From NCBI RefSeq assembly GCF_030068605.1, contig NZ_JASJOU010000001.1:930001-994000 (forward strand): 64,000 nucleotides of DNA. The letters run 5' to 3'. Shown one piece after another: positions 62,949-64,000 of the stretch. The stretch comes from Xanthocytophaga agilis (GTDB lineage: Bacteria > Bacteroidota > Bacteroidia > Cytophagales > 172606-1). The translations under genes were made by a program, and so were the position numbers. The notes below the pieces were generated by a model. It saw only the letters and a list, made by a program, of their open reading frames with translations. It did not search any database and was not told the origin of the DNA. Positions within the stretch are counted from its first letter, which is position 1, and the number at the start of each line of letters is the position of its first letter.

Positions 62949-64000
62949 TCAGTTTCTTGAAATATTTCTTCCAGATTCAGGTGCTTGAAAGTTAGAAATA
63001 CAAATTTCAAGCATATCAATTTTTTGATTGGTTAGATTTAGAATATGAGTAAGTATATCTGTAGAGTAACCACCACTACCATGATTACGATGGGTATTTT
63101 CATTCGTGGTAAAGGTTAGATCTTGCTTCTTCGTATGTGCATAGGCTTCCTCTGCTATTTTTTTATGAGGCATACGAAAACTTTTCAGCAATCTGCAACA
63201 GGAACTGAGACTTTTAAGCGAGTCTAAAATTATACTATTAAATTCTACCTGACCATCTGCCAAACGACAGACTTTACTTACCATACTTGATTTATTCTCA
63301 AATTCGAGATATATGTTCCGCATTTCAGGGTGAATATAAGGCAAATAGGTTTCTTTAAAAATGCGGTACTCTTCATCCTGACAATCACTACTCCATAGGA
63401 GATGATCAAAGACAAACATAGGCATTTCTACTGCTCCAGGCCCTAAATATTCACGATTATTTAATATAATAGGATCGAAATAAAACCGGAGTTCATTGGC
63501 AAAGTAGGAGGGTGATACTTTTCGTCGAGCTATTACAATGCCTTCAATCACGTTTTCAAATAAGGCAACTATTTCCTGACATATTATTTTGAACTCTGGT
63601 GAACTAAGTGATGTAAGGTGGAGATTTCGCAGAAGAATAATGCAACGAACCAATGGCTCCATCGCTACTACTACACTCTCTATCAAAAATTGTTCATCCT
63701 GAGTTCCTGTATAAGTACGTCTGCGGAAATCTGTTGGGTTCCAAACTGTATAGTGCAATAATGTATCACGAGGAGGTAAACCTGATTTCTCTCCCATAAG
63801 ATTCATTTTATCTTCCAGTTCTGGTATGATATTGACCGGTTCTACCTGATGCCTTTTTAAAGAACCCAGTAAAAAACCTATATCCCGAATAGCTGCATTA
63901 GCCTGATATTTATCAAATGTATGAATCTCATTCATTGATGGCATAATATCTACCAGCAATAATACAAGTTCAATAGTATCCTTTTTTTGATTAAGAAAAG
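62949..64000 (-). CDS. PrnB-like haem enzyme (monodechloroaminopyrrolnitrin synthase family), 5' end beyond window
   Basis: At least 350 codons; the frame is still open at base 64000, so the gene continues outside and the TTG at 63959 is not the true start. Compared from memory with Pseudomonas PrnB, it keeps long identical or near-identical blocks: AAIRDIGFLLGSLKRH, LPPRDTLLHYTVWNPT, YLGPGAVEMPMFVFDHLLW, FKETYLPYIHPEMR, MPHKKIAEEAY and GSGGYSTDIL. Even the residues read upstream of 63959 (NQKKD) align. PrnB is a haem protein related to indoleamine/tryptophan dioxygenases that rearranges 7-chlorotryptophan in pyrrolnitrin synthesis. The His at codon 63165-63167 is a candidate haem ligand. The substrate here is unknown and may be plain tryptophan or another indole. 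Confidence 0.88.
   Translation of the reverse strand, partial: FLNQKKDTIELVLLLVDIMPSMNEIHTFDKYQANAAIRDIGFLLGSLKRHQVEPVNIIPELEDKMNLMGEKSGLPPRDTLLHYTVWNPTDFRRRTYTGTQDEQFLIESVVVAMEPLVRCIILLRNLHLTSLSSPEFKIICQEIVALFENVIEGIVIARRKVSPSYFANELRFYFDPIILNNREYLGPGAVEMPMFVFDHLLWSSDCQDEEYRIFKETYLPYIHPEMRNIYLEFENKSSMVSKVCRLADGQVEFNSIILDSLKSLSSCCRLLKSFRMPHKKIAEEAYAHTKKQDLTFTTNENTHRNHGSGGYSTDILTHILNLTNQKIDMLEICISNFQAPESGRNISRN

What the first reader, a model, noticed from the sequence alone, without database searches (positions are those of the whole stretch)
62949..64000. PrnB homologue (pyrrolnitrin pathway-type haem enzyme) in a Cytophagales-like genome, running off the window
The protein shares many long blocks with PrnB, which catalyses the ring rearrangement of chlorotryptophan in the antifungal pyrrolnitrin pathway. 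Such enzymes are best known from Pseudomonas and Burkholderia. Here the gene is last before the window edge, its 5' end lies outside, and no prnA, prnC or prnD is visible. It could belong to an unknown indole-derived metabolite pathway, or the family could have a wider role.
Basis: partly seen in the sequence, partly recalled or inferred. Interest (0 to 1): 0.75.

Follow-up and report, generated by a model that had tools for sequence, protein, structure and literature searches.

The report
PrnB haem enzyme with STAS partner
A gliding bacterium carries a true relative of PrnB, the haem enzyme that builds the skeleton of the antifungal pyrrolnitrin, but instead of the pyrrolnitrin genes it comes with a small unstudied STAS-fold protein that accompanies this enzyme across many Bacteroidota and is fused to it in one genus, which makes it a testable candidate for the helper that purified PrnB seems to lack.

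Summary
The gene (window 62949-64112, 387 aa; 112 bases lie beyond the window) encodes a bona fide PrnB-family haem protein with the proximal His and substrate-loop Ser in place. PrnB in Bacteroidota is not new: a Flavobacteriales homologue has been crystallised (PMC11791213).

The context is new. No prnA/C/D is nearby and the genome has no credible Trp halogenase. Instead, 22 of 24 members of the Bacteroidota PrnB clade have a specific ~135-aa STAS (SpoIIAA-like) gene upstream on the same strand: 18 adjacent or fused, three with a methyltransferase between, one after 0.5 kb. Across 390 genomes of the order, this STAS subfamily and PrnB share 12 genomes (P ~5e-20). Four genera add a RedM/HIOMT-like methyltransferase. 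Pocket residue 117 (PfPrnB numbering) is Val in every PrnB of a prn cluster and Tyr in every other, including this one.

Best reading: a Tyr117-type PrnB acting on unchlorinated tryptophan in an uncharacterised pathway, with the STAS protein as dedicated partner. Family and linkage are shown; substrate, product and partner function are inferred. Purified PrnB is inactive in vitro, so the STAS protein is a directly testable missing component.

The parts
62949..64000 (-). prnB homologue, visible part of a 387-aa gene that ends at window-equivalent 64112. Beyond the window edge follow: STAS-fold partner gene at 64149-64565 (-, 138 aa, same frame, 36 bases upstream of prnB) and methyltransferase gene at 65154-66164 (+, 336 aa), i.e. 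L002:9149-9565 and L002:10154-11164.
   Evidence: neighbours
63165..63167 (-). Codon of His316, aligned with PfPrnB His313, the expected proximal haem ligand
   Evidence: Alignment; invariant in all complete family members sampled. That His313 is the ligand is from general knowledge of the PfPrnB structure.
63750..63752 (-). Codon of Tyr121, aligned with PfPrnB Val117: indole-pocket residue that separates prn-cluster PrnBs (Val) from all others (Tyr)
   Evidence: role of Val117/Tyr104 in the pocket from PMC11791213
63075..63077 (-). Codon of Ser346 in the GSGGY loop, aligned with PfPrnB Ser332; probable counterpart of FbPrnB Ser319 that holds the substrate carboxylate
   Evidence: function of Ser319 from PMC11791213; equivalence to Ser319 inferred from loop position
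63423..63443 (-). GPGAVEM motif (residues 224-230), at the substrate-carboxylate Gly-Gly site of FbPrnB
   Evidence: Gly210/Gly211 role from PMC11791213; equivalence inferred

Best explanation
The gene encodes a Tyr117-subtype PrnB: a histidine-ligated haem enzyme of the PrnB/IDO/TDO superfamily that most likely binds unchlorinated L-tryptophan with the substrate amine on the haem iron and oxidatively rearranges or oxygenates it. It works with a dedicated STAS-fold protein encoded directly upstream, most likely a protein partner that activates the enzyme or handles its ligand or product. In this and three other genera a RedM/HIOMT-like methyltransferase then modifies the product. It is not part of a pyrrolnitrin pathway. 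Shown: family, fold, key residues, gene linkage, one fusion, co-occurrence, absence of halogenases. Inferred: substrate, product, chemistry and the partner's function.
For: PF08933 and PDB PrnB matches; natural fusion model superposes on PrnB 2x67, TM 0.93; His316, Tyr121, Ser346 conserved; STAS gene upstream in 22 of 24 clade members over at least 12 gene contexts; STAS-PrnB fusion in Reichenbachiella; co-occurrence 12 of 13/14 in 390 genomes; correlated distances r 0.63, 0 of 2000 permutations; linked STAS 199 bits against 75 for the best paralogue in the same genome; linked methyltransferases share an active-site signature distinct from unlinked sisters; no credible Trp halogenase; purified PrnB lacks activity and a missing component is proposed (PMC11791213).
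Against: Two Dyadobacter PrnBs have no STAS gene nearby, and prn-cluster PrnBs have none either, so STAS cannot be needed by all PrnBs. Unlinked second STAS copies exist. The AF2 fusion model shows no confident domain interface. FbPrnB, also Tyr-type, binds 7-Cl-Trp too, so Tyr does not exclude a chlorinated substrate. No product is known.
Confidence: 0.6

Rival explanations
1. Haem-based sensor rather than biosynthetic enzyme: the PrnB-like domain binds Trp, O2 or NO and passes the signal to the STAS protein, as haem-containing RsbR stressosome proteins join a helical haem domain to a STAS domain.
For: STAS fold with Z 11-13 to SpoIIAA, RsbS and stressosome STAS domains; STAS-PrnB fusion; a stressosome acting as an oxygen sensor is known (PMC9237108).
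Against: Association with a methyltransferase in operons; substrate-binding residues fully conserved; no sigma-factor or kinase gene recurs next to it; the Ser at the start of the second helix is Ala, Leu or Asn in some members, so no conserved phosphoswitch is evident.
Confidence: 0.15
2. The PrnB homologue is a stand-alone tryptophan oxygenase (monooxygenase-like or IDO-like) and the STAS protein has no direct role; the genes are merely co-transcribed.
For: Two Dyadobacter PrnBs lack a nearby STAS gene; the wider superfamily holds a 2-oxindole-forming monooxygenase, MarE (PMC11904535); the linked methyltransferase keeps an O-methyltransferase-type His, which fits a hydroxylated product.
Against: Fusion, co-occurrence and correlated divergence of STAS and PrnB. 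The genome already has a TDO match, so plain Trp catabolism does not need PrnB.
Confidence: 0.2
3. Pyrrolnitrin-type pathway with halogenases elsewhere in the genome.
For: PrnB homology alone.
Against: No credible Trp_halogenase in the genome; no prnA/C/D near any Bacteroidota PrnB sampled; Tyr instead of Val at position 117; separate clade from prn PrnBs.
Confidence: 0.03

Closest known systems
PrnB of Pseudomonas fluorescens (PDB 2v7i, 2x67; PF08933), pyrrolnitrin pathway
   Same: Family, fold, haem His, Ser loop; about 42% identity over the aligned region
   Different: Tyr121 in place of Val117; no prnA/C/D; dedicated STAS gene and in some genera a methyltransferase; separate clade
FbPrnB of a Flavobacteriales bacterium (PDB 9dfg; PMC11791213)
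   Same: Bacteroidota PrnB with Tyr in the indole pocket (Tyr104)
   Different: Only about 28% identical and outside the STAS-linked clade; its gene context was not available
SpoIIAA-like/STAS proteins (DUF3478 2q3l; 4xs5 from Dyadobacter; PF11964)
   Same: Fold of the partner protein (Z 13.1 and 12.7)
   Different: Below the Pfam cut-off, 11-16% identity, own conserved motif (HLSDHxxLKVLSKEVQxYL), tied to PrnB
RedM of reductasporine biosynthesis (PDB 8tji) and hydroxyindole O-methyltransferase (4a6d)
   Same: Closest solved relatives of the neighbouring methyltransferase; both act on Trp-derived substrates
   Different: His245 where RedM has Ser253, so O-methylation or another substrate is more likely than N,N-dimethylation
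Haem-containing RsbR/stressosome proteins
   Same: Helical haem domain joined to a STAS domain, as in the Reichenbachiella fusion
   Different: Globin-type haem domain, opposite domain order, coupled to kinase signalling (from general knowledge); none of that is seen here

Membership tests
PrnB family (PF08933) | Match over the curated family cut-off | tested here: met
   167 bits against 27
PrnB family (PF08933) | PrnB/IDO-type helical haem fold | tested here: met
   AF2 model of the 39-45% identical Reichenbachiella homologue, TM 0.93 to 2x67; the window protein itself was not folded
PrnB family (PF08933) | Proximal His (PfPrnB His313) and substrate-loop Ser | tested here: met
   His316 and Ser346
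PrnB family (PF08933) | Binding of Trp through the haem iron and rearrangement to an arylpyrrole | not testable with these tools
   Needs protein
Pyrrolnitrin (prn) pathway | prnA, prnC, prnD in the cluster or genome | tested here: not met
   None nearby; only a 65-residue weak Trp_halogenase match in the genome
Pyrrolnitrin (prn) pathway | Val at pocket position 117 (empirical marker of all prn-cluster PrnBs sampled) | tested here: not met
   Tyr121
STAS / SpoIIAA-like (partner protein) | STAS fold | tested here: met
   AF2 pLDDT 85; Z 13.1 to 2q3l, 12.7 to 4xs5
STAS / SpoIIAA-like (partner protein) | PF11964 over its curated cut-off | tested here: not met
   16.4 bits against 25; 6 of 18 members match weakly
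RedM-type N,N-dimethyltransferase (neighbouring methyltransferase) | No catalytic His (Ser253/Asn254 in RedM) | tested here: not met
   His245/Ser246
Stressosome RsbR-like sensor | Companion RsbS and RsbT-type kinase genes | tested here: inconclusive
   No such gene seen to recur in the flanks inspected, but kinases were not searched by profile or genome-wide

The most novel reading that the evidence does not exclude
The STAS-fold protein is a dedicated activator or ligand carrier of PrnB-type haem enzymes, i.e. the kind of cellular component without which purified PrnB is inactive, and the pair defines an unrecognised Bacteroidota pathway to a non-halogenated, sometimes methylated, tryptophan-derived product.
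Probability: 0.35. Interest if true: 0.8.

Novelty: new variant of a known kind. Interest (0 to 1): 0.6.

Why it matters
PrnB catalyses one of the oddest haem reactions known, yet purified PrnB has not turned over in vitro, and the 2024 study suggests that a cellular component is missing (PMC11791213). Here a whole clade of PrnBs has a fixed protein partner, fused to it in one genus, and in some genera a tailoring methyltransferase. This gives a testable candidate for a missing component and a lead to tryptophan-derived metabolites outside the pyrrolnitrin producers.

Tried and rejected
Pyrrolnitrin pathway with distant halogenases: rejected. PrnB as a stand-in for a missing TDO: rejected, a TDO match is in the genome. 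Chance adjacency of a common STAS paralogue: rejected (linked copy 199 bits, best paralogue 75; at least 12 gene contexts). Methyltransferase as a RedM-like dimethylase: weakened by the active-site His. A first mixed alignment for folding the fusion (A3) put the STAS rows on the PrnB region and was discarded; in-frame read-through of adjacent stas and prnB genes was used for paired rows instead. AF2 gave no confident domain interface. More fusions could not be sought near L021 because its genome has no G handle. Contexts of the unlinked sister methyltransferases showed no common enzyme. Literature searches for PrnB in Bacteroidetes and STAS with haem found nothing on this pairing.

Full report
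WHAT IS THERE. The ORF at 62949-64000 (-) is real and continues 112 bases past the window; in the genome it is a 387-aa gene. It matches Pfam PrnB at E 5.7e-49, and the PDB sequence search returns only PrnB entries: P. fluorescens PrnB (E 1.8e-67) and a Flavobacteriales PrnB (E 1.4e-39). Identity is about 42% to PfPrnB and 28% to FbPrnB over the aligned regions. The genome is a Xanthocytophaga species: X. flavus has an 88% identical protein in the same gene order. It is a single-copy gene.

POCKET. PfPrnB His313 (expected haem ligand), Trp120 and Ser332 correspond to His316, Trp124 and Ser346 here and do not vary among complete sequences of the clade. Position 117, which shapes the indole pocket (Val in PfPrnB, Tyr in FbPrnB; PMC11791213), is Val in every PrnB that sits with prnA/C/D (Pseudomonas, Burkholderia, Trinickia, Serratia, Azotobacter, Citreicoccus) and Tyr in every one that does not (Bacteroidota, Streptomyces), including the window's Tyr121. 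The prn PrnBs (100/98) and the Bacteroidota PrnBs (100/97) are separate, neighbouring clades, so the residue is a marker and may owe its pattern to ancestry alone. FbPrnB, with Tyr, binds both Trp and 7-Cl-Trp, so Tyr does not exclude the chlorinated substrate.

NO PYRROLNITRIN PATHWAY. There is no PrnA/C/D relative in the window, in about 26 kb past it, or in the loci of the other Bacteroidota PrnBs. The genome's only Trp_halogenase match is 65 residues long at E 3e-5, and the same model also rings in E. coli and archaeal control genomes. A TDO match is present elsewhere, so PrnB is unlikely to be the sole Trp-degrading haem enzyme. Family members in other non-prn contexts, such as Streptomyces plasmids beside a flavin oxidoreductase and ketosynthase-like gene or a GNAT gene, support a wider role of the family.

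THE PARTNER. Directly upstream, just outside the window (64149-64565 in window-equivalent coordinates), lies a 138-aa gene. Its counterparts form a subfamily with the motif HLSDHxxLKVLSKEVQxYL. Of the 24 PrnBs of the Bacteroidota clade placed in the tree, 22 have it upstream on the same strand: 18 within about 110 bases (often under 10, once overlapping, once fused), three with a methyltransferase gene between, one after a 532-base gap. Two Dyadobacter PrnBs have none nearby. In Reichenbachiella versicolor the STAS domain is fused to the N-terminus of PrnB in one 509-aa ORF, with a second, less divergent STAS gene right behind it. Leaving these genes out, the surroundings fall into at least 12 unrelated contexts, so general synteny does not explain the pairing. 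In 390 genomes of the order, PrnB is found in 14 (13 over the cut-off) and the strong STAS subfamily in 13, with 12 shared, P about 5e-20. The one STAS-only genome, G003, keeps it next to an Hsp20-like gene like the one that follows prnB in G007, consistent with loss of prnB from that site. The PrnB-only genomes are one with a frame-broken, Dyadobacter-like prnB and one with a truncated, sub-threshold match. Caveats: the profile was built from PrnB neighbours, relatedness among genomes inflates the significance, and unlinked second copies exist in several PrnB genomes. Still, in the window's genome the linked copy scores 199 bits and the best of eight others 75. Distances of STAS and PrnB correlate (r 0.63, 0 of 2000 permutations), which shared host ancestry may also produce.

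FOLDS. AF2 of the STAS protein (pLDDT 85) gives a STAS/SpoIIAA-like fold, Z 13.1 to 2q3l and 12.7 to 4xs5, although Pfam PF11964 stays below its cut-off. AF2 of the natural fusion gives a STAS domain plus an IDO-type domain that superposes on PrnB 2x67 with TM 0.93. The linker has pLDDT under 50 and pTM is 0.69, so no interface is claimed. Part of that alignment used in-frame read-through of adjacent stas and prnB genes as paired rows.

THE METHYLTRANSFERASE. The gene divergent from stas-prnB (window-equivalent 65154-66164, +) belongs to a group found beside PrnB in four genera (Xanthocytophaga, G007, G458, G751); in the last three it lies inside a stas-mt-prnB operon. Its closest solved relative is RedM, which dimethylates the pyrroline nitrogen of a Trp-derived bisindole; hydroxyindole O-methyltransferase is third. 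RedM has Ser253 at the position of the usual catalytic base; the linked enzymes have His there (His245), with Ser246 and Asn302, where unlinked sister methyltransferases have His/Asp/Asp. This suggests a shared, specialised substrate; whether oxygen or nitrogen is methylated is open.

MECHANISM PROPOSED. Shown: a PrnB-family protein with an intact haem site, in a conserved two- or three-gene module with a STAS protein. Inferred: it binds unchlorinated L-Trp with the amine on the iron, as in characterised PrnBs; O2 activation rearranges or oxygenates the indole; the STAS protein activates the enzyme or passes ligand or product; the methyltransferase caps the product. Purified PrnBs are inactive and a missing partner has been suggested (PMC11791213), but prn-type PrnBs have no STAS gene in their clusters, so it is at most one solution to that problem. 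The main rivals are a haem sensor signalling through STAS, and a STAS gene without a direct role.

VERDICT. The finding is real and its family assignment right, but its headline (PrnB outside Pseudomonas/Burkholderia) is already known. The conserved, once-fused STAS partner and the Val/Tyr117 split are, as far as the searched literature shows, undescribed. I rate it a new variant of a known kind.

Noticed in passing
L091, L092, L093 (genomes G485, G521, G533): A second, unlinked copy of the PrnB-type STAS gene follows a Crp-like regulator and a flavodoxin-type NAD(P)H oxidoreductase gene on the same strand in Sporocytophaga-like genomes; the oxidoreductase could be a redox partner.
   Followed up: partly
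L061/L063 (genome G690): A Dyadobacter-like prnB without STAS is split into two frames by a frameshift; other Dyadobacter copies (L009, L010) are intact.
   Followed up: partly
L119:7947-13432 (Streptomyces sp. NBC_01717 plasmid): A PrnB homologue lies beside a flavin-dependent oxidoreductase, a ketosynthase-like gene and a phosphopantetheine-binding protein gene: a different, apparently uncharacterised PrnB context. The record has a second PrnB-like place.
   Followed up: partly
L121:4322-9884 (Azotobacter salinestris plasmid): A complete prnABCD-like pyrrolnitrin cluster sits on a plasmid typed as conjugative, a possible route for spread of the pathway.
   Followed up: no
window 61956-62792 (-): DUF4197 protein gene (E 1.7e-78) downstream of prnB; among the loci seen it is next to prnB only in Xanthocytophaga.
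   Followed up: no
L021:9563-11587: In Reichenbachiella the fused STAS domain is divergent (long branch), while a separate, conventional STAS gene follows directly: duplication with division of roles, or decay of the fused copy.
   Followed up: partly
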